Origin: a virus
Strand: one strand, 5' to 3'
Virus record (IMG/VR): IMGVR_UViG_3300021141_000015
Coordinates: 1-48,689 of that record
DNA length: 48,689 bases
This document shows positions 1-17,137 of this stretch, piece after piece. The notes beneath the pieces were generated by a model. It ran no database searches. It saw only the letters and a program-made list of their open reading frames with translations, and was not told the DNA's origin. Made by a program: the position numbers and the translations under genes. Every line of letters starts with the position of its first letter. Positions within the stretch are counted from its first letter, which is position 1.

Positions 1-116
1 GTATTTTGCCAGATATTAAGCTCGACATTCCTACAGATATTAAGCTCGACATTCCTACAGATATTATCCCCGACATTACGCCAGACATTATCCCAAATCT
101 GCTCTTCGATATTCAT
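1..116 (-). CDS. Tetrapeptide-repeat small protein, 3' part cut by window edge
   Basis: The reading frame starts at 116 (MNIEEQIWDNVW) and runs off the left edge, so at least 38 residues are present. It shares the N-terminal signature MNIEEQIW with the next genes and continues as a four-residue repeat with V or I at every fourth position (DNVW, RNVG, DNIC, RNVE). Its start overlaps the stop of the gene at 113-301 in an ATGA arrangement, so it is the last visible member of a translationally coupled array. A 24-base direct repeat lies inside it. Function unknown. Confidence 0.7.
   Translation of the reverse strand, partial: MNIEEQIWDNVWRNVGDNICRNVELNICRNVELNIWQN
11..66. repeat. 24-bp direct tandem repeat inside repeat-protein gene
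   Basis: Two perfect adjacent copies of a 24-base unit occupy 11-34 and 35-58, and an incomplete third copy begins at 59. The unit length is a multiple of 12 bases, so each copy adds two four-residue protein repeats without shifting frame. This looks like a recent expansion of the tetrapeptide repeat. Confidence 0.9.
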
Positions 117-301
117 TTGAAACTTTTGTATTGATGCCTAACTTTATCCGCTACATTGCGACAGACATTCTGCCTGACATTGCGTAAGACATTATCCCCG
201 ACATTACATCTAACAGCATAACTGATATTAATAAAGTTTTTACACCAAATTTTTTGACTGATAATAAAGACATTACTCCAAATCTGTTCCTCTATATTCA
301 T
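113..301 (-). CDS. Tetrapeptide-repeat small protein, array member
   Basis: A 62-residue protein starting MNIEEQIWSNV, a signature shared with several neighbours. The C-terminal half follows a four-residue period (CNVG, DNVL, RNVR, QNVC, RNVA, DKVR). It overlaps both neighbours by four bases (ATGA), pointing to coupled translation within one operon. The repeat places a hydrophobic side chain at every fourth position, compatible with an amphipathic helix or a tightly turned beta structure. I know of no described family that it clearly matches. Confidence 0.75.
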   Translation of the reverse strand: MNIEEQIWSNVFIISQKIWCKNFINISYAVRCNVGDNVLRNVRQNVCRNVADKVRHQYKSFK

Positions 302-501
302 TTGATACTTTTGTATTGACGCTTAATATTGTCTCTAACATTATCTCGAACATTGTCTTGAGTATTAATCCAGACATTATTTAATACATTACCCCAGACT
401 TTATCTGAGACATTATCTGAGACTTCATCACTGACAATATTTGAAACATTATTTAATGTGCCATCCAAAACATTATTATAGATTTGCTCTTCTAAAGTCA
501 T
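298..501 (-). CDS. Tetrapeptide-repeat small protein, array member
   Basis: A 67-residue protein beginning MTLEEQIYNNV. The repeat is very regular from about residue 18: SNIV, SDEV, SDNV, SDKV, WGNV, LNNV, then RDNV twice. It ends IKRQYKSIK, close to the ends of its neighbours (QYKSFK, RQSKSIK), so paralogy extends over the whole length. ATGA overlaps on both sides. Function unknown. Confidence 0.75.
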   Translation of the reverse strand: MTLEEQIYNNVLDGTLNNVSNIVSDEVSDNVSDKVWGNVLNNVWINTQDNVRDNVRDNIKRQYKSIK

Positions 502-698
502 TTGATGCTTTTAGATTGACGCTTAACATTTTGCCAGACATTACGCTTGACACTATCCCAGGCAATCATTGATACATTATCTCTGATTTTATCTCGGACA
601 CTACCCCAGACATTATCAACGTAAATACTTTCGAGCTCACGCCAGATTTTTTCAGTGCCATTAACAACATTATCCCAAATCCGCTCATCAATATTCAT
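498..698 (-). CDS. Tetrapeptide-repeat small protein, array member
   Basis: I place the start at 698 (MNIDERIWDNV) because it matches the family signature and overlaps the upstream gene by only 11 bases; an upstream in-frame start would overlap it far more. The 66-residue product ends with RNVWQNVKRQSKSIK. A spacer of about 25 residues (NGTEKIWRELESIYV) is less regular than the rest. Same coupled operon. Confidence 0.7.
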   Translation of the reverse strand: MNIDERIWDNVVNGTEKIWRELESIYVDNVWGSVRDKIRDNVSMIAWDSVKRNVWQNVKRQSKSIK

Positions 699-891
699 AC
701 TCTTGGATGCGTTTGTATACACTTCTAATGTTATTGTATGTATTGTCCCATACATTATGTTCGACGCTGTACCGTACACTATACAGGATATTATTGTCTA
801 TATTGGTCCAAATATCGCTTAAGATACTATACTTGATATCTCCCCAAGCATTACTTCTGATATTATTCCAGATGTGCTCTCTGTTATTCAT
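688..891 (-). CDS. Tetrapeptide-repeat small protein, array member (diverged)
   Basis: The start is set at 891 (MNNREHIWNNI) by family similarity. The 67-residue product keeps the four-residue rhythm (SDIW, TNID, NNIL, YSVR, YSVE, HNVW, DNTY, NNIR) but is richer in Tyr and Ile than its neighbours and ends QEYEY. It overlaps the gene upstream by 8 bases and the one downstream by 11. Function unknown. Confidence 0.65.
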   Translation of the reverse strand: MNNREHIWNNIRSNAWGDIKYSILSDIWTNIDNNILYSVRYSVEHNVWDNTYNNIRSVYKRIQEYEY

Positions 892-1090
892 ATATGTCTT
901 CTGCTGATGTATATTGATACAACTCAACATTACGGCCGACATTGCGTCCGACCCTATCTCTAATATCACGCAAGGCCTTATCTCTGACCTCGCGGAAGGT
1001 ATTATTTGCTACACTATACCAGAGATTGTCCCAGACCCTACATCTGACCATATATATCGTGTCGTCTTCAATAAGTTCTTTAGTAGTCAT
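884..1090 (-). CDS. Tetrapeptide-repeat small protein, array member (variant N-terminus)
   Basis: A 68-residue protein beginning MTTKELIEDDTIYMV, without the MNIxxQ signature, but with the repeat in the middle (CRVW, DNLW, YSVA, then DKAL, RDIR, DRVG, RNVG, RNVE). The acidic tail TSAEDIYE is unlike the basic tails of its neighbours. It sits between array members at the same spacing. Confidence 0.65.
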   Translation of the reverse strand: MTTKELIEDDTIYMVRCRVWDNLWYSVANNTFREVRDKALRDIRDRVGRNVGRNVELYQYTSAEDIYE

Positions 1091-1093
1091 AAA

Positions 1094-1291
1094 TCAAAAA
1101 CTCTGGACTTTCGAATCAAAAATCCTGATAGCACTCCAGATATTATCCCAGACCTTGTCTCCGACATTACATCTGACATTGCGCCAGACATTAGTATTAA
1201 CATCATTATCGACCTTATCGCGAATCTTATCTCTAAGATTTTCGTAGACGATATGCCGGAGATCAGTTCCAATCTGCTTTCTAATATTCAT
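1094..1291 (-). CDS. Tetrapeptide-repeat small protein, most regular member
   Basis: A 65-residue protein starting MNIRKQIGTDL. From about residue 20 it is an almost perfect run of eight four-residue units, KIRD, KVDN, DVNT, NVWR, NVRC, NVGD, KVWD, NIWS, with V or I always second. It is the clearest view of the repeat rule. There is a three-base gap to the downstream gene and a four-base overlap with the upstream one. Confidence 0.75.
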   Translation of the reverse strand: MNIRKQIGTDLRHIVYENLRDKIRDKVDNDVNTNVWRNVRCNVGDKVWDNIWSAIRIFDSKVQSF

Positions 1292-1494
1292 ACTTTGCTA
1301 TTTTTCGTATTAAACTTTACTACATTATGAACATTAAATCGGGTAATAATCTTTACCTTGCTATGGACATTATTCCAGACATTATCACTAACGCTCGTCC
1401 AGGCTTTTTCGCAAATGCCGTCCCAGACATTGCGCCAGACATTATCGTAGACTTTTTGGTATACATCATCCCAAGCCTGCTTTTCAATATTCAT
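1288..1494 (-). CDS. Tetrapeptide-repeat small protein, array member
   Basis: A 68-residue protein starting MNIEKQAWDDVYQKV. The family signature and the repeat (DNVW, RNVW, DGIC, EKAW, TSVS, DNVW, NNVH) are clear. The last 20 residues lose the period. ATGA overlaps on both sides. Confidence 0.75.
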   Translation of the reverse strand: MNIEKQAWDDVYQKVYDNVWRNVWDGICEKAWTSVSDNVWNNVHSKVKIITRFNVHNVVKFNTKNSKV

Positions 1495-1697
1495 ACTCTG
1501 TTTCTTCGAGCGTTAAGTTTAACATTGAGTCCAATACTGCTCCAGATATTATTGCTAACTGTCTCAGTGAGATTGGCAAGGACTTTAAGCCGGACTCTCT
1601 CGGCGATACTATCTCTGACATTGTTGGCAGTTTGTCTGTTCACAATATTTTGAGTTTGCAAACAGACACTATATTGAATCTGTTTATTAATGCTCAT
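1491..1697 (-). CDS. Tetrapeptide-repeat small protein, array member
   Basis: A 68-residue protein starting MSINKQIQYSV. The repeat is looser (NNVR, DSIA, ERVR, LKVL, ANLT, ETVS, NNIW, SSIG, LNVK). It overlaps the first gene of the operon by four bases. It is probably the second gene translated from the promoter at 1883. Confidence 0.7.
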   Translation of the reverse strand: MSINKQIQYSVCLQTQNIVNRQTANNVRDSIAERVRLKVLANLTETVSNNIWSSIGLNVKLNARRNRV

Positions 1698-1882
1698 AGA
1701 CTACGATAGCGCATTTCTTGGTCAACAGCAGCCTCCAGCCTATCATATAGACCTCGGGCAGCGGCCGCTCGCTCCATAGCAGTAAGGCGCTCACTCGTTA
1801 GAGCATGAAGCCTCATCAAAATATCGTCTGACGCGTCTTGCAAGATTTCTTCAAAGATGTCGTAAAAGTTTTCTTCTTTCAT
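1694..1882 (-). CDS. Small helical protein, first gene of the repeat-protein operon
   Basis: A 62-residue protein (MKEENFYDIFEEIL...) directly behind an early box, with its ATG six bases after TATAAT. It is acidic, Ala/Glu/Arg-rich and predicted helical, and lacks the tetrapeptide repeat. Its stop overlaps the first repeat gene (ATGA), so it heads the operon running to the left edge. Function unknown. Confidence 0.7.
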   Translation of the reverse strand: MKEENFYDIFEEILQDASDDILMRLHALTSERLTAMERAAAARGLYDRLEAAVDQEMRYRSL

Positions 1883-1905
1883 ATTATTATTATATCAGAG
1901 TTCCC
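1883..1905 (-). promoter_or_regulatory. Early box, leaderless type, heading the repeat-gene operon
   Basis: On the minus strand it reads GGGAACTCTGA, then TATAAT, then six bases, then ATG of the 1694-1882 gene. The TGA in the box is the stop codon of the gene upstream. Confidence 0.7.
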
Positions 1906-2152
1906 GTGCGGGAGTTATAGTTTGTTCTTGATAAGAAACGACAATACCTTTTACATTGCCTCTAATATTGGACCACACTCTTGCTCTATTAAACATAACT
2001 CTTTCATAGATATGGTCGCCGATATTATCTACAACAATGCTCATAAGTTTTTTTCTGACATTGCGTCCTACTCCAAAATATATATCAGTATGAGCGACTT
2101 GAATAATCTTCTCTGAAAGCCTAATAGGCCTCTTTGCGGCTTCTTTATTCAT
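1895..2152 (-). CDS. Hypothetical small protein with remote repeat-family similarity
   Basis: The start at 2152 (MNKEAAKRPIRL) is preferred over an upstream one at 2170 because the latter would run into the gene at 2161-2400. The product has 85 residues. The segment RVWSNIRGNVKGIVV resembles the tetrapeptide repeat. Its last codons and TGA stop (AREL-stop) lie inside the early box of the next gene. Confidence 0.6.
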   Translation of the reverse strand: MNKEAAKRPIRLSEKIIQVAHTDIYFGVGRNVRKKLMSIVVDNIGDHIYERVMFNRARVWSNIRGNVKGIVVSYQEQTITPAREL

Positions 2153-2932: not shown

Positions 2933-4252
2933 TCAGGAGAACAGAGGCATGATTGGGTGCCCTTCGGTGACAATCTGATCCGTTTTCGGATCGCGAGTAT
3001 GACCTGCCACGAGGAACGGGCGGCCGGACGGCGCGTAAATCACCTTGTTGAGGTCAAGTCCCATCGCGTAGGCGATGGTGGCATTGAAGTCCTTGGCTTC
3101 GACTGGATTCTCCTTCACCGCGATACCCTTCTCGTCGGAAGATCCGTAGACTTGGCCACCGGTAATGCCACCGCCAGCGAACATGGTCGAGAACACGCGT
3201 GGGTGGTGGTCTCGGCCGCCGTTGACGTTGATCACCGGGGTCCGGCCAAACTCCGTCCCGACGCAGATAAGGGTCTTCTCGAAGAGTCCGTCAGCTTTGA
3301 GATCATCGATGAGCGAGGCGAGGGCTTGGTCGAGCTGACCACCGGTCTGCGGGATCGCATTCCAGAGGTCGTTGTGCATGTCCCAACCGCCGGAGACGAC
3401 TTCGACGAAACGAACGCCGGAGCTGACAAGGCGCTTGGCAAGCATCGCGCCCTTGCCGACGCGGGTGTTGCCGTAGCGTTGCACCTTTTGGTCGTAGTCC
3501 TTCTCCTTCATGAGATCGAAGGTTTCGAGGTCTTCGCTCTTCATGAGCTTGAGGGTTTCCTCGTAAAACTGGGTGTAGGCCTTCACCTCGTCCGTCTGGA
3601 ACTTGCGACGGAACGCTTCGTCGAAGGTGTTCATGAGATCGAGACGCTTGTCGAAGAGGTCTTCACCCACGCCATCGAAGGGACGCGCGTTTTGCACCCC
3701 TTTATCCGGATCACCGATCGGGAGGGGGGCGAGAGCGGGACCAAAGAAGCCGGCGCCCGGGTGCTCGCCGCCGCCGCCGATGACGACGGAGTCGGGGAGG
3801 GTGTCGTGTTTCTTGCCAAGGAGAGTCTGCGCCCAAGGACCCATGGAGGGGTGGATGATGGTGGCACGGGGCTCGTAGCTGGTGCGCATCCAGTAGGCAC
3901 CACCGCGGTGGTCGCCCGTCTTCTGCGTCATCGAGCGGATCACGGCGATGTCCTTGAAGCGCTTGGCGAGTTCGGGCATGAACTCGGCGAGTTGGACGCC
4001 TGCGACACCGGTGTCGATTCCCTTCGTCGCCCCACCGGTTTCAGTGCCGGGCTTGGGATCGAAGGTCTCCATGTGGGTCATACCGCCCGACATGTAGAAG
4101 AAGATGACGTGCTCAGCCTTGCCTCCACCGGCAGCGCGAAGGGGCTTCGCGGCGCCAATGGGCAGGACGCTCACCCCGAGGGCGGTTTTGGCTGCGCGCG
4201 CCACAAATTGGCGGCGGCTCAGTTGGTCGAGTCGGTTCAGTGCGTCTTTCAT
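2933..4252 (-). CDS. DUF1501 family protein with Tat signal (horizontally acquired)
   Basis: A 439-residue protein. It begins with a twin-arginine signal (LSRRQFVARAA near residues 11-21, then a hydrophobic stretch and an Ala-Ala-Gly-Gly cleavage region). The body has the DUF1501 pattern: an early FFYMSGGMTHMETFDPKP segment, MRTSYEPRA, SGGWDMHNDLW, and GTEFGRTP with GGRDHHPR. DUF1501 belongs to the alkaline-phosphatase-like/sulfatase fold and is abundant in Planctomycetota and Verrucomicrobiota; its exact reaction is not established. The start at 4252 is preferred because the Tat signal begins there. The coding region is far richer in GC than all flanking DNA, a sign of recent transfer. Length suggests a complete gene. 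Confidence 0.9.
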   Translation of the reverse strand: MKDALNRLDQLSRRQFVARAAKTALGVSVLPIGAAKPLRAAGGGKAEHVIFFYMSGGMTHMETFDPKPGTETGGATKGIDTGVAGVQLAEFMPELAKRFKDIAVIRSMTQKTGDHRGGAYWMRTSYEPRATIIHPSMGPWAQTLLGKKHDTLPDSVVIGGGGEHPGAGFFGPALAPLPIGDPDKGVQNARPFDGVGEDLFDKRLDLMNTFDEAFRRKFQTDEVKAYTQFYEETLKLMKSEDLETFDLMKEKDYDQKVQRYGNTRVGKGAMLAKRLVSSGVRFVEVVSGGWDMHNDLWNAIPQTGGQLDQALASLIDDLKADGLFEKTLICVGTEFGRTPVINVNGGRDHHPRVFSTMFAGGGITGGQVYGSSDEKGIAVKENPVEAKDFNATIAYAMGLDLNKVIYAPSGRPFLVAGHTRDPKTDQIVTEGHPIMPLFS

Positions 4253-4271
4253 TATTGTATTGTAGTTAGTA

Positions 4272-4613
4272 TTAGTCTCGAACATTACGAAGAGCCTCGC
4301 TGAAGTAATCATACTCCTGCTGGAAGCCGAACTCGTAAGATCCGGGAGCGATATCGATCGAGGTATGACGATCGGCTTTGACACATCGAATCTGAGTCGG
4401 AATCGAGTTCTTCATAAAGAGCTTCCCGCCGGGAGACTCGAAGAACTGAACCCCTTCAAAGAGGTCGACGACGTGATGATTGCCAGTCACCTCGGAATCA
4501 GCGACGATCATATACCCTTGAGTCGTATTAGGACTCTTAAGCACAGCATCGTTAGGGATTTTACCAGGGGTGACAATACACTCACCGTGAAGAATACATT
4601 CGTTGTTTTTCAT
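4272..4613 (-). CDS. DUF6745-associated small protein
   Basis: A 113-residue protein. The pattern VTGNHHVVDL in the middle and PGSYEFGFQQEYDY near the end match a short bacterial family, as I remember it, commonly found beside DUF6745 genes (VTGHxH and QxEY motifs). The DUF6745 gene lies directly upstream in the same direction, supporting a functional pair. Role unknown. An early box sits before the start with about eight bases of extra leader. Confidence 0.65.
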   Translation of the reverse strand: MKNNECILHGECIVTPGKIPNDAVLKSPNTTQGYMIVADSEVTGNHHVVDLFEGVQFFESPGGKLFMKNSIPTQIRCVKADRHTSIDIAPGSYEFGFQQEYDYFSEALRNVRD

Positions 4614-4666: not shown

Positions 4667-5632
4667 TTACGCAATACCAGCAATCTTCAGTTCACGTCCG
4701 CCAAGTCGCTCCTTAACAGCATCGGCCAGCGTTCGACATTGCGGAGAGACCGCCTCAACGTGAAAAACTCCCGTGGTCAAGTTTGTCATACGAAGATGCG
4801 GAGCATATCGAACACCCTGAAACAAGCAAGCCATATCCCACAGTTCATACTCAGACTTACTCCACCACACATCGTCATACTTCTCGTAGGAGTCAACCTT
4901 CTTGCCAAGCTCGAGCATTCGCTCGACCCCGAACTTGCGAACAAACTCAGTCTTTTGATCAGCATTCTTGATAGTATTATAATGCTTCAAGTCAAGCTGC
5001 TCACCCGGAGTAACCGCAAGATACTCATCGACCATAACTCCGTTAAGAGAATAAATCTTGAACGGCCCATGACCCTCATACTCAAGCGCAGGAGCGCCAT
5101 CGCAATGAAGTTGATTCTCTTCGTTAAGTTTAATAACGCTCGGCTTCTCAGAGACGATACAGACATTTTCGAGCGGATAAATCAGACCAAGCTTAGTCGT
5201 CTCTTCCCACATATCGTAGAGATTACGCAGATCGTTCGGGATCTCAATCTTCAGCTCGTTAAACATAAAGTCATAGAACGAGAAGACAGAGACAAAGAAC
5301 GAACCTTCTTGATACGGAAAGACCGGATCACCAACTTCGATATCTCGCTCACCCTTCGGCGTATTGAAGTAGTTATCAACACGCGCTTGAAGGTCATCAG
5401 GCGCAACTCCATTAGCGGCATAGTTGCAAGCAACCCAGCACTCGTTAGGATTCTTAAGAATCACGACAGGGGTCGTCGGACGCTCCAGAATATGCTTCTG
5501 GAAGTTATGAACGATACGCTCCGTCTCCTTCGGATCAAGGCGATCAGTATTAAGACCAATCTTGGTCCATTTAGCTACGTACTCAGGAAACTTAGCCTCC
5601 TGCTCAGCAGTCAGTTTTTCAATCTTACTCAT
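4667..5632 (-). CDS. DUF6745 domain protein
   Basis: A 321-residue protein. From about residue 175 the order of motifs fits DUF6745: LHCDGAPALEYEGHGPFKIY, a YSLNGVMVDE segment, NADQKTEFVRKFGVERML, then a C-terminal MACLFQGVRYAPHLRMTN, STGVxHVE-like TTGVFHVEAV and QCRTLADAV. DUF6745 proteins are found in cyanobacteria, actinobacteria and planctomycetes and have no assigned reaction. Base composition is higher in GC than the surrounding small phage genes, though less than the DUF1501 gene. It forms a cassette with 4272-4613. The start at 5632 lies about 40 bases after an early box. Confidence 0.75.
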   Translation of the reverse strand: MSKIEKLTAEQEAKFPEYVAKWTKIGLNTDRLDPKETERIVHNFQKHILERPTTPVVILKNPNECWVACNYAANGVAPDDLQARVDNYFNTPKGERDIEVGDPVFPYQEGSFFVSVFSFYDFMFNELKIEIPNDLRNLYDMWEETTKLGLIYPLENVCIVSEKPSVIKLNEENQLHCDGAPALEYEGHGPFKIYSLNGVMVDEYLAVTPGEQLDLKHYNTIKNADQKTEFVRKFGVERMLELGKKVDSYEKYDDVWWSKSEYELWDMACLFQGVRYAPHLRMTNLTTGVFHVEAVSPQCRTLADAVKERLGGRELKIAGIA

Positions 5633-5675
5633 ATTTATTTTAGTTTAGTTTAGTTTAAGTTTTGCTCTTCTCTTT

Positions 5676-5695
5676 TATTATATTAAAGTTCCTTA
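5676..5695 (-). promoter_or_regulatory. Early box with longer leader
   Basis: AAGGAACTTTAA then TATAAT; the TAA is the stop of 5683-6141. About 40 bases with repeated CTAAA units separate it from the DUF6745 start at 5632, so this copy must act at transcription and not as a ribosome signal. Confidence 0.6.
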
Positions 5696-7617: not shown

Positions 7618-7641
7618 ACTATTATTATATCAGGGTTCCTT
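7618..7641 (-). promoter_or_regulatory. Early box, leaderless type
   Basis: AAGGAACCCTGA-TATAAT-six bases-ATG of 7423-7617. One base differs from the usual ACTCTGA, turning the last residue of the upstream protein from Leu to Pro. Confidence 0.7.
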
Positions 7642-7815
7642 TTTCTTATAATGTTCAAAAACAGATGCTTTTACATTCAACGCCGCGGGCACTTGAAGGT
7701 TGCCCATAGTATCTCGCCAAGTCTTCCATACAACAGCTTCATCAATACCGTCCCATACACGAGACCATACATTATTCCATATAGCATTTCTTACGTGGGA
7801 TTTAATCCTGTTCAT
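7630..7815 (-). CDS. Repeat-family small protein
   Basis: Start set at 7815 (MNRIKSHVRNAIWNNV), giving 61 residues and a 14-base overlap with the gene upstream; longer in-frame starts would overlap more. HVRNAIWNNVWSRVWDGIDEAV is the tetrapeptide repeat. It ends KKKEP with its TGA in the next early box. Confidence 0.6.
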   Translation of the reverse strand: MNRIKSHVRNAIWNNVWSRVWDGIDEAVVWKTWRDTMGNLQVPAALNVKASVFEHYKKKEP

Positions 7816-7999
7816 TTTTACGAGAGCCATGCTCTGCCAGCCAATCGTTAGAGCAATCAAGATGAACATCTACCATCTTAGATACATCCTCAGAAAAATT
7901 TGTGAGTAGCATACCTTCAAGATACGATACAACACTGGTATCGGCATATCTTCGTCGAAGATTTTCAATAAGTTTTTTTACTTTTTCAGAATGAGTCAT
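7802..7999 (-). CDS. Hypothetical phage protein
   Basis: A 65-residue protein starting MTHSEKVKKLIENLRRR. An in-frame start at 8047 would overlap the upstream gene by 62 bases; 7999 gives 14, the same as the next junction. It is predicted helical and charged. Function unknown. Confidence 0.5.
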   Translation of the reverse strand: MTHSEKVKKLIENLRRRYADTSVVSYLEGMLLTNFSEDVSKMVDVHLDCSNDWLAEHGSRKNEQD

Positions 8000-8907: not shown

Positions 8908-9114
8908 TTACTTTACAGCCTCTTTACTTTTTCTACAAAAAGTAAGCACATTACCCCTCACCGCGATGACGCCACTGACCTCTACAGACTGTAAAAGATT
9001 TAAGGCACTGCTCCAGACTGGCTCTTCTATACCGTCCCAAGTCTTCCTCCAGCATTTAGAACGGACATTATCCCAAACCTTATCCTCTATATCCTTATCT
9101 ATAACATTATACAT
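8908..9114 (-). CDS. Repeat-family small protein
   Basis: A 68-residue protein starting MYNVIDKDIEDKVWDNVRS; KDIEDKVWDNVRSKCWRKTW shows the four-residue period. The second half does not. It shares one base with the upstream gene. Confidence 0.6.
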   Translation of the reverse strand: MYNVIDKDIEDKVWDNVRSKCWRKTWDGIEEPVWSSALNLLQSVEVSGVIAVRGNVLTFCRKSKEAVK

Positions 9115-15375: not shown

Positions 15376-15461
15376 TGGTACCTAGGACGGGACTCGAACC
15401 CGTACGAGATTGCTCCCAGCGGATTTTAAGTCCGCTGCGTCTACCGTTCCGCCACCCAGGC
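15376..15461 (-). tRNA. tRNA-Leu (anticodon UAA)
   Basis: A class II tRNA with a long variable arm (TGGGAGCAATCTCGTA region), anticodon arm GCGGA-CTTAAAA-TCCGC, T arm ACGGG-TTCGAGT-CCCGT and encoded CCA. Acceptor GCCTGGG/CCTAGGT has a G1-U72 wobble. It reads UUA, frequent in AT-rich genes. Confidence 0.95.
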
Positions 15462-15469
15462 TTTACACT

Positions 15470-15538
15470 TTATTCTTCAGCACCGGTTATCATATAATAA
15501 ACGGTTAGCAAAAATGTCATTATAATAATCCCAATCAT
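15470..15538 (-). CDS. Candidate 22-residue membrane peptide
   Basis: MIGIIIMTFLLTVYYMITGAEE, starting in an ATGA overlap with the membrane protein upstream and ending nine bases before tRNA-Leu. Nearly all of it is one hydrophobic segment. Coupling to another membrane protein supports it, but size makes it uncertain. Confidence 0.4.
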   Translation of the reverse strand: MIGIIIMTFLLTVYYMITGAEE

Positions 15539-15711
15539 TCTCCTGCTTTGTAAAAGTTATCAATGTAAAGTAAAAGTAATCCCAATAGGCCGATGTCTAT
15601 AGAAAGACATACAGTTGCTACAAACGTTCCGAAGAACGCTAGAATGAATGAATAGAAGAGGATTTCAAAAAAGAAAATCCCTAGTACTATTTTGGCGCTC
15701 GCTGATTCCAT
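15535..15711 (-). CDS. Small two-segment membrane protein
   Basis: A 58-residue protein starting MESASAKIVLGIFFFEILFY. Two hydrophobic segments (about residues 8-32 and 37-50) are joined by a short turn (SIDIG) and the tail is YIDNFYKAGE. Its start lies inside the end of the Lar-like gene (25-base overlap). Small size and two segments would fit a holin-like role, but nothing proves it. Confidence 0.6.
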   Translation of the reverse strand: MESASAKIVLGIFFFEILFYSFILAFFGTFVATVCLSIDIGLLGLLLLYIDNFYKAGE

Positions 15712-15878
15712 TTTTTTGCTGCTTGTTGTCTGCTATTGTTAAACTTAGAGTCTCTTACATCGGCTCCGCATTCGTTATTCTTACACGATACGCCGAACCC
15801 CCAAGGGTTATCATAAATCTTACCTTTACTGCCACAAAATGGGCAAGGTAAAAGTTCAGGTTCTTTTATTTCTTTCAC
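15687..15878 (-). CDS. Lar-like restriction-alleviation zinc protein
   Basis: A 63-residue protein. The order LLPCPFCGSKGKIY, GVSCKNNECGADV, then AAKKWNQRAPK follows the Lar family (two Cys pairs, then an A-A-x-x-W-N-R tail). Rac-prophage Lar modulates type I restriction/modification; many phages carry relatives of unproven function. GTG start, six bases after TATAAT. Confidence 0.8.
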   Translation of the reverse strand: MKEIKEPELLPCPFCGSKGKIYDNPWGFGVSCKNNECGADVRDSKFNNSRQQAAKKWNQRAPK

Positions 15879-15901
15879 AATCTTATTATATCAAAGTTCC
15901 C
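15879..15901 (-). promoter_or_regulatory. Early box before a GTG start
   Basis: GGGAACTTTGA-TATAAT-six bases-GTG of the Lar-like gene. The TGA ends the HAD phosphatase gene. Confidence 0.7.
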
Positions 15902-16406
15902 TATGAACAGAATTAAGAAATTCAATACAATCTTGCTTGAAGGAGTCATCTGGAAAATCGACCCCATAGTAGTCTTCAATATTGAGATACCTGTCGCGCT
16001 CGATACCGATTACTTTAAGCTTATCTCGATTATTATACACAGGCAGATTATCAATCAATACATTATTTTCATTTCTATACTTTGACTCTTGCTGTCTGAC
16101 AAAATGTTTAATCTGCTCGCGAGAAATAATCTGCTCGCGATTGAATCCGAAGTCTGCCTTATTACAAATATCAAAGGCATATTCGTATGTAGCAGCAGTT
16201 AGGATGAGAACATTCCTATGACCAACCAGCTTACGCGAGTAGTCAATAACATCCTTACTATCCCGCCTTACCTTAACATAGTAAGTATCCGTAGTCGACC
16301 ATGCCCCGCTATCAAGATGGATGGAGAAATCATAATCCCCATTTTTTGATTCTGTCATAGAATGAATAAGGGTCTCGTCGAGGTCCCAAAACACACAGTT
16401 AATCAT
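15891..16406 (-). CDS. HAD-superfamily (FCP1/NIF-like) phosphatase
   Basis: A 171-residue protein. Motif I is DLDETLIHS (residues 8-16), motif II NVLILTAATYEY (about 65-76), and the later acidic motif NNVLIDNLP around residue 115. The DLDETL signature followed by a Tyr/Arg-rich stretch is like FCP1/NIF phosphatases. Substrate unknown; a protein or small phosphate ester is possible. It ends HREL with the stop in an early box. Confidence 0.8.
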   Translation of the reverse strand: MINCVFWDLDETLIHSMTESKNGDYDFSIHLDSGAWSTTDTYYVKVRRDSKDVIDYSRKLVGHRNVLILTAATYEYAFDICNKADFGFNREQIISREQIKHFVRQQESKYRNENNVLIDNLPVYNNRDKLKVIGIERDRYLNIEDYYGVDFPDDSFKQDCIEFLNSVHREL

Positions 16407-16425
16407 AATACACTATAATCTCAAT

Positions 16426-17106
16426 TTATACAAGTTCAACTCTTTTTCTAACAATAGTTTCAAGCCCCTTATAGTTGCTTTCAATCTCGGGAATGACCCT
16501 ATGTCGCAGCCAGTTACGTCTGCTATAAACAATATCCGAGTTAGAGGGATCGCTCTCAATCCAATCCCATAGATTGTTATCGTTGAGATATTTCACAATA
16601 GACTTCTTTGGGGTAGTAATGAATGGTCTAACAATCTTACAGTTATCACCTCGCATAGTAGAGAGAGGAATAGGCATATACTCTGGCACACCATTGAAGC
16701 AGTTCATCAAATAAGACTCAACACAATCCCCAAGATGATGGCATACTACTACCTCATTTACTTTACCCAAGCCATTTTCATTTACTGCTTCAGTAATAAG
16801 ATTGTATCTAATATCTCTCAGTTCAGACTCAGACATACCTTTGGTGTATGAAGCATTGCTCTTTACAATACCGGTAATAGGATATTTAGATTTACGGACG
16901 GAGCTAAGCCAAGGGACATAGCGCTCAAAACGTCTCTGCGCTTTAGCAGCATACTCGGTACCATGATTGATATGAATCAAACAAACCTTTCTATACCCTT
17001 GCGAGAGGTAATGAGACATAGCAATACTATCCTCGCCCATAGATACAGCGCAGAAAAGAGTATCAGTCTTGTTAGTCTCAATAAGTTTCTTATTTAACTT
17101 CATCAT
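16426..17106 (-). CDS. TilS-like tRNA(Ile)-lysidine synthetase
   Basis: A 226-residue PP-loop ATPase. The ATP loop AVSMGEDS is at residues 20-27 (family SGGxDS), LIHINHG follows, then VVCHHLGDCVESYLM (family HHxxDxxET), and RPFITTPKKSIVKYL with SNxxxxYSRNWLRHRVIPEI-type ending. This order is that of the TilS catalytic domain, which attaches lysine to C34 of tRNA-Ile2(CAU). The C-terminal tRNA-binding domains of long TilS are absent, as in short TilS forms. A tRNA-Ile2 is encoded in the same window. The start is 17106 or the next ATG at 17103. Confidence 0.85.
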   Translation of the reverse strand: MMKLNKKLIETNKTDTLFCAVSMGEDSIAMSHYLSQGYRKVCLIHINHGTEYAAKAQRRFERYVPWLSSVRKSKYPITGIVKSNASYTKGMSESELRDIRYNLITEAVNENGLGKVNEVVVCHHLGDCVESYLMNCFNGVPEYMPIPLSTMRGDNCKIVRPFITTPKKSIVKYLNDNNLWDWIESDPSNSDIVYSRRNWLRHRVIPEIESNYKGLETIVRKRVELV

Positions 17107-17111
17107 TTTCT

Positions 17112-17137
17112 TTATTATATTATAATAAAGTTCCTTT
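17112..17137 (-). promoter_or_regulatory. Early box before tilS-like gene
   Basis: AAAGGAACTTTAT-TATAAT with a further ATAATAAAG tail before ATG, so spacing is longer than six. Confidence 0.6.

What the first reader, a model, noticed from the sequence alone, without database searches (positions are those of the whole stretch)
1..1697. Operon of at least nine tandem paralogous small genes built from a tetrapeptide repeat
Nine adjacent genes of about 65 residues share an N-terminal MNIxxQIW signature and a four-residue repeat with V/I at every fourth position and N/D/R/W/K around it. One member (1094-1291) has eight units in a row. Most junctions are four-base ATGA overlaps, so the set is translated as a chain. 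At DNA level the repeat has a 12-base period, and a 24-base perfect duplication (11-58) shows active expansion. I know no described family with this rule. Possible roles: multivalent binding scaffold, inhibitors diversified against host defences, or a self-assembling filament.
Basis: partly seen in the sequence, partly recalled or inferred. Interest (0 to 1): 0.9.

Follow-up and report, generated by a model that had tools for sequence, protein, structure and literature searches.

The report
Split phage tetrapeptide-repeat gene cluster
A phage carries at least nine small genes in a row built from a four-amino-acid repeat; in related phages the same repeat usually sits inside one larger protein of unknown function (DUF6745), so the cluster looks like a detached, duplicated and diversified version of that protein's variable part, possibly used against bacterial defences.

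Summary
Nine minus-strand genes (3-1697; the one at the contig end is cut) carry four-residue units xx[N/S][V/I]. Eight of nine score p<=0.0006 against composition-preserving shuffles with a profile trained on other phages. The repeat is widespread in phages, usually as an array inside DUF6745 proteins. The window also encodes a DUF6745 protein (4667-5632), but without an array.

This 'split' state recurs: free-standing repeat genes flank 12 of 25 array-less DUF6745 clusters and 0 of 81 fused ones (Fisher 2e-9; 2e-7 without the three seed clusters). L252 repeats the layout: six tandem repeat genes joined by ATGA/GTGA overlaps behind an array-less DUF6745 gene. A cupin-like gene (window 4272-4613) accompanies DUF6745 in 124 of 160 loci.

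Within other phages' arrays, variation is confined to two amino-acid-changing sites per unit, resembling mycobacteriophage Tweety gp54 (PMC2884959), a counter-defence protein retuned by changing its repeat number (PMC9262239). Best reading: detached, duplicated variable modules of a DUF6745 system, probably counter-defence. Architecture is well supported; function is inferred by analogy.

The parts
3..116 (-). tetrad-repeat gene, cut by the contig end; holds the 24-base duplication
   Evidence: profile p=0.0002
113..301 (-). tetrad-repeat gene
   Evidence: ATGA overlaps on both sides; p=0.0006
298..501 (-). tetrad-repeat gene, 11-unit run
   Evidence: p=0.0002
498..698 (-). tetrad-repeat gene
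   Evidence: p=0.0002
688..891 (-). tetrad-repeat gene
   Evidence: p=0.0002
884..1090 (-). tetrad-repeat gene
   Evidence: p=0.0002
1094..1291 (-). tetrad-repeat gene, eight units in a row
   Evidence: p=0.0002
1288..1494 (-). tetrad-repeat gene, 9-unit run; predicted single helix 3-66
   Evidence: p=0.0002
1491..1697 (-). degenerate tetrad-repeat gene
   Evidence: ATGA overlaps; profile p=0.055
1694..1882 (-). first gene of the operon, no tetrad signal (p=0.40)
   Evidence: ATGA overlap with 1491-1697
1889..1904 (-). promoter-like element heading the operon
1895..2152 (-). further diverged tetrad gene
   Evidence: p=0.0014
4272..4613 (-). cupin-like partner gene (phrog_27831)
   Evidence: E=3e-21; E=2.9e-4
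4667..5632 (-). DUF6745 protein without internal array
   Evidence: (Pfam E=3.2e-6, 27.0 bits, at the curated cut-off)
5677..5692 (-). promoter-like element ahead of DUF6745
7630..7869 (-). further diverged tetrad gene
   Evidence: p=0.0014
8908..9114 (-). further diverged tetrad gene
   Evidence: p=0.0072

Best explanation
Shown by comparison: the tandem genes are free-standing counterparts of the hypervariable tetrapeptide array that most phage DUF6745 proteins carry between a short N-terminal domain and the C-terminal DUF6745 domain. In this phage, as in several others, the DUF6745 protein lacks the array and tetrad genes stand apart from it as a co-oriented, translation-coupled, diverged set. 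DUF6745 (4667-5632) and a conserved cupin-like gene (4272-4613) complete a probable three-part module. Inferred: the small proteins are rod-like helices that dock on or cooperate with the DUF6745 core and set its specificity or spacing. Fused systems vary by gain, loss and exchange of 12-base units; split systems also vary by gene duplication and divergence. Inferred by analogy with Tweety gp54: the module is an accessory counter-defence (host-takeover) system that must keep changing to match variable bacterial targets.
For: Tetrad profile trained on other phages' arrays recognises eight of nine genes. 77 of 80 DUF6745 loci fetched by the C-domain alone have an internal array. The window's DUF6745 gene has none. 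Free tetrad genes lie beside 12 of 25 array-less and 0 of 81 fused DUF6745 clusters, 45 of 51 co-directional. Independent look-alikes: L252, L060, L098, L281. Cupin-like partner in 124 of 160 loci. Two-site variability in arrays; near-identical proteins with different arrays; a single 12-base unit indel as the only difference over 8.4 kb. Tweety gp54: same 12-base layout and tested counter-defence, tuned by repeat number (PMC2884959, PMC9262239).
Against: No experiment on any DUF6745, cupin-like or free tetrad protein was found. Tweety gp54 has no DUF6745 and a different constant pair (AA). In the window a foreign-looking DUF1501 gene and about 3 kb separate DUF6745 from the operon. L114 has five tandem tetrad genes but no DUF6745 was found in its 150-kb contig, and the sister contig G001 has a tetrad gene but no DUF6745; both may be incomplete. 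13 of 25 array-less clusters show no free tetrad gene in the flanks held. No PADLOC or PDB match. The direction of change (fused to split or the reverse) was not tested.
Confidence: 0.5

Rival explanations
1. Self-contained small inhibitors: each free tetrad protein is an independent amphipathic helix that binds its own host target, with no functional link to DUF6745; proximity only reflects shared origin.
For: L114 and the sister contig L022/G001 have free tetrad genes without a detected DUF6745. Paralogues are very diverged. Degenerate members lie scattered through the window.
Against: Strong association with array-less DUF6745 and co-direction; ATGA coupling to DUF6745 itself in L060 and L098.
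Confidence: 0.25
2. Structural scaffold or filament: the helices assemble with each other, or serve as a virion or tail part.
For: Long helical prediction with a regular hydrophobic position every four residues.
Against: Array length and sequence differ between proteins with near-identical flanks, which fits poorly with a fixed structural part; the operon lies among small accessory genes, away from the structural genes at 27-47 kb.
Confidence: 0.1
3. Selfish or neutral DNA repeat: the 12-base repeat expands by slippage and the open frames are by-products.
For: Several other frames across the repeat are open too, on both strands; 12- and 24-base tandem copies.
Against: ATGA chaining, an upstream promoter-like element, conserved N-terminal starts, in-frame 12-base changes only, the codon pattern, and recurrence of the same protein rule with different codons in different phages.
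Confidence: 0.05

Closest known systems
DUF6745 proteins (Pfam PF20530) with internal tetrad array
   Same: Same four-residue rule with W/R/G, D/A, S/N, V; same 12-base unit; the window encodes a DUF6745 protein.
   Different: In the window the array is not inside DUF6745 but spread over at least nine separate, strongly diverged genes.
Mycobacteriophage Tweety gp54 / Che8 gp57 / PMC gp51 (PMC2884959, PMC9262239)
   Same: 12-base, four-residue tandem repeat with two constant and two variable residues, fixed third codon positions, variable copy number; tested counter-defence role for Tweety gp54.
   Different: Constant pair AA; unrelated flanks (no DUF6745); a single protein, not a gene set; constant residues differ from N/S-V.
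TALE-type repeat arrays (own knowledge)
   Same: Homogenised repeats with two adjacent variable residues per unit.
   Different: Unit of 4 rather than about 34 residues; no homology or DNA-binding evidence.
Pentapeptide-repeat proteins (own knowledge)
   Same: Very short tandem units with a repeating aliphatic residue.
   Different: Period 4, not 5; no Pfam match; helix, not beta-helix, predicted.

Membership tests
Phage tetrad ([WRG][DA][SN][VL]) array class | Period-4 units matching the array profile above shuffles | tested here: met
   Eight of nine genes p<=0.0006, one p=0.055
Phage tetrad ([WRG][DA][SN][VL]) array class | Variation confined to two nucleotide sites per unit, third positions fixed | tested here: not met
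   Window units vary at third positions too (1.14-1.70 bits), unlike other phages' arrays; read as older, diverged copies
DUF6745 module (core, array, cupin-like partner) | DUF6745 gene present | tested here: met
   Pfam E=3.2e-6 at the curated cut-off; phrog_31813 E=3e-7
DUF6745 module (core, array, cupin-like partner) | Array inside DUF6745 | tested here: not met
   No array in 4667-5632; filed as the split variant
DUF6745 module (core, array, cupin-like partner) | Adjacent co-directional cupin-like gene | tested here: met
   4272-4613, E=3.1e-21 with a model built from other loci but first seeded partly with the window protein; phrog_27831 E=2.9e-4 independently
Tweety gp54 family | Homologous N- and C-terminal flanks | tested here: not met
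   Tweety gp54 has no DUF6745 match, and the window genes are free-standing
Tweety gp54 family | Counter-defence activity dependent on repeat number | not testable with these tools
   Needs plating assays
Pentapeptide repeat | Five-residue period A(D/N)LXX | tested here: not met
   Period 4; no Pfam match
Diversity-generating retroelement target | Adenine-specific substitutions copied from a template repeat by a reverse transcriptase | tested here: inconclusive
   Variable base 1 is T/G/A/C and base 5 mostly A/C, which does not look like A-to-N; no search for a reverse transcriptase was made

The most novel reading that the evidence does not exclude
A widespread, undescribed three-part phage module (cupin-like protein, DUF6745 core, tetrad helices) in which very short two-site-variable units form a modular recognition string. 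Split members such as this window hold a repertoire of interchangeable strings that one DUF6745 core can use, and the system neutralises variable bacterial defences.
Probability: 0.25. Interest if true: 0.88.

Novelty: new variant of a known kind. Interest (0 to 1): 0.64.

Why it matters
It ties three unexplained things together: phage tetrapeptide arrays, the unknown domain DUF6745, and runs of tiny paralogous phage genes. In many phages two amino-acid-changing sites per unit vary, apparently at random, while synonymous sites stay fixed, which calls for a strong and unusual selective cause. The split systems make the question testable, because the variable part and the core can be expressed and swapped separately.

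Tried and rejected
Close relatives of the window genes: none in IMG/VR for 1288-1494 or 1694-1882 and only a chance-level match in named phages. Solved structures and curated families: no convincing match for the tetrad proteins; against PHROGs only 298-501 reached E=6e-4, to an uncharacterised family. DUF6745 fold: no PDB match; only other viral DUF6745 and uncharacterised phage proteins. PADLOC: no defence-system match. A positional code: the two variable residues show no consistent autocorrelation and almost no mutual information (0.015 bits), so unit order looks random. Literature: no paper on DUF6745 or on the repeat strings in the library held. First free-standing screen by lag-4 identity: dominated by low-complexity frames and replaced by a stricter rule. 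Three apparent free tetrad genes beside fused DUF6745 were low-complexity artefacts on inspection. A first codon-entropy table for the window was filtered on V/I and was replaced by a table of profile-picked runs.

Full report
Observation. The region is a minus-strand run of nine small genes, the last cut by the contig end. Five of eight internal junctions and the junction to the upstream gene 1694-1882 are ATGA overlaps; the rest are overlaps of 11 and 8 bases and a 3-base gap. The eight-unit run in 1094-1291 and the perfect 24-base duplication at 11-58 are as described. A tetrad profile trained only on arrays from other phages gives eight genes p<=0.0006 and the ninth p=0.055 against residue shuffles; three further window genes (1895-2152, 7630-7869, 8908-9114) also score. 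The contig end inside the repeat is probably an assembly break: many DUF6745 contigs also begin or end in or next to the array.

The family is widespread. Most arrays lie inside larger proteins: DUF6745 proteins; a second family ending '...LWExGLVPSFDGKTWRLHG'; and a DUF7666 protein. Arrays with both ends in view have 6-58 units, median 18. Free-standing arrays also occur, for example five tandem genes in L114.

Anatomy of the array. In 89 arrays of at least 12 units, mean within-array entropy over the 12-base unit is 1.48 .31 .13 | .24 .97 .13 | .02 .10 .07 | .11 0 .13 bits. Variation is concentrated at base 1 (an NGG codon, giving W/R/G) and base 5 (GAC/GCC, giving D/A), with synonymous positions nearly fixed within an array. 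Other flavours (QV, AT, AV, QL, SL, NL) behave alike, with base 2 also variable in AT and AV. The order of variants looks random. My inference is fast homogenisation by unequal exchange combined with selection that keeps two residues diverse. The window genes differ: third positions vary too, as expected for older copies that are no longer homogenised.

DUF6745 link. Window 4667-5632 is a DUF6745 protein with no array, where 77 of 80 relatives, fetched by the C-terminal domain alone, carry one; two of the other three are cut by contig ends. A second scan seeded with array-less members gave a larger table. Of 124 loci with both halves of DUF6745 in one frame, 86 were fused and 38 array-less. 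At 90% identity clusters, free-standing tetrad genes lay in the flanks of 12 of 25 array-less and 0 of 81 fused clusters (Fisher 2.4e-9), or 9 of 22 against 0 of 81 without the three seed clusters (2.0e-7). Forty-five of 51 such genes, counted over loci with some near-duplicates, are co-directional with DUF6745. The sample is similarity-ranked and flanks are limited, so the rates are not unbiased.

Closest anatomical parallels. L252 has six tandem genes (IDPG...LEEES) joined by ATGA/GTGA overlaps directly behind an array-less DUF6745 gene. L060 reads tetrad gene-ATGA-DUF6745-ATGA-tetrad gene. L098 has an ATGA-coupled tetrad gene and further copies. L281 has five diverged QV-type genes behind DUF6745; its near-twin L282 differs over 8.4 kb by a single 12-base indel, which one search places in one of them as one repeat unit.

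A third component. A cupin-like gene (window 4272-4613; phrog_27831) lies beside DUF6745 in 124 of 160 loci, always on the same strand and usually touching it. The cupin-like label rests on sequence appearance and a sub-threshold Pfam match. No function was found for it or for DUF6745.

Expression. The element GGAACTCTGATATAATAATAATATG occurs nine times with up to three mismatches (none expected), and the core GGAACnnnnATATAAT fifteen times, always on the minus strand and mostly just before start codons, including 1889-1904 ahead of the tetrad operon and 5677-5692 ahead of DUF6745. A similar element, GGAACACCGATATAAT, heads the tetrad operon of L114. The operon and DUF6745 are therefore probably in one regulon; this is inferred from sequence only.

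Structure. AlphaFold2 gives window 1288-1494 as one helix with pLDDT 86.5. A fused DUF6745 protein is well folded outside the array, while most of the array has pLDDT 29-57 and is mostly drawn as helix. The helical state is a prediction from shallow alignments.

Function. The nearest tested protein is Tweety gp54. Its array (AA plus G/W/Q and S/Y) has fixed third codon positions and was read in 2007 as consistent with selection for variation (PMC2884959; recomputed). A 2022 review reports that Tweety mutants that overcome the Phrann gp29/gp30 defence change the number of its tetrapeptide repeats (PMC9262239). gp54 lacks DUF6745, so this is an analogy of mechanism, not membership. On this basis I favour an accessory counter-defence module whose variable part is detached and multiplied in this phage, with about even confidence overall: high for the architecture, low for the role.

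Verdict. The claim of an isolated, unknown rule is not right. The strongest new points are the recurrent fused/split relation with DUF6745, the cupin-like partner, and the two-site hypervariability across flavours.

Noticed in passing
window 2933-4384 (-): DUF1501 gene (Pfam E=7e-104) with about 61% GC in a phage of about 40% GC, between the cupin-like gene and the tetrad operon; captured host gene or assembly artefact.
   Followed up: partly
window 1889-1904, 2407-2422, 5677-5692 and 12 further places, all minus strand: A recurring promoter-like element GGAACYYTRATATAAT with TATAAT only a few bases before many start codons, suggesting near-leaderless transcripts.
   Followed up: partly
L017 / L024 against window 4740-5692 and 15454-17116: A sister contig (94-97% identical) joins the DUF6745 gene directly to window 15454 in the opposite relative orientation: an inversion or rearrangement, or an assembly error.
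   Followed up: no
L022 10433-12170 (-): A sister phage has one clear tetrad gene (MTLEEQISYSV..., p=0.0005) and several small ATGA-chained genes, mostly without a detectable tetrad signal, near its metallophosphoesterase gene, a place where the window has none.
   Followed up: partly
L008 2005-2874, L026, L032, L053 and others; L121 2403-3308: The same tetrad arrays sit in two other protein families: one without a Pfam match ending '...LWExGLVPSFDGKTWRLHG', and a DUF7666 protein.
   Followed up: partly
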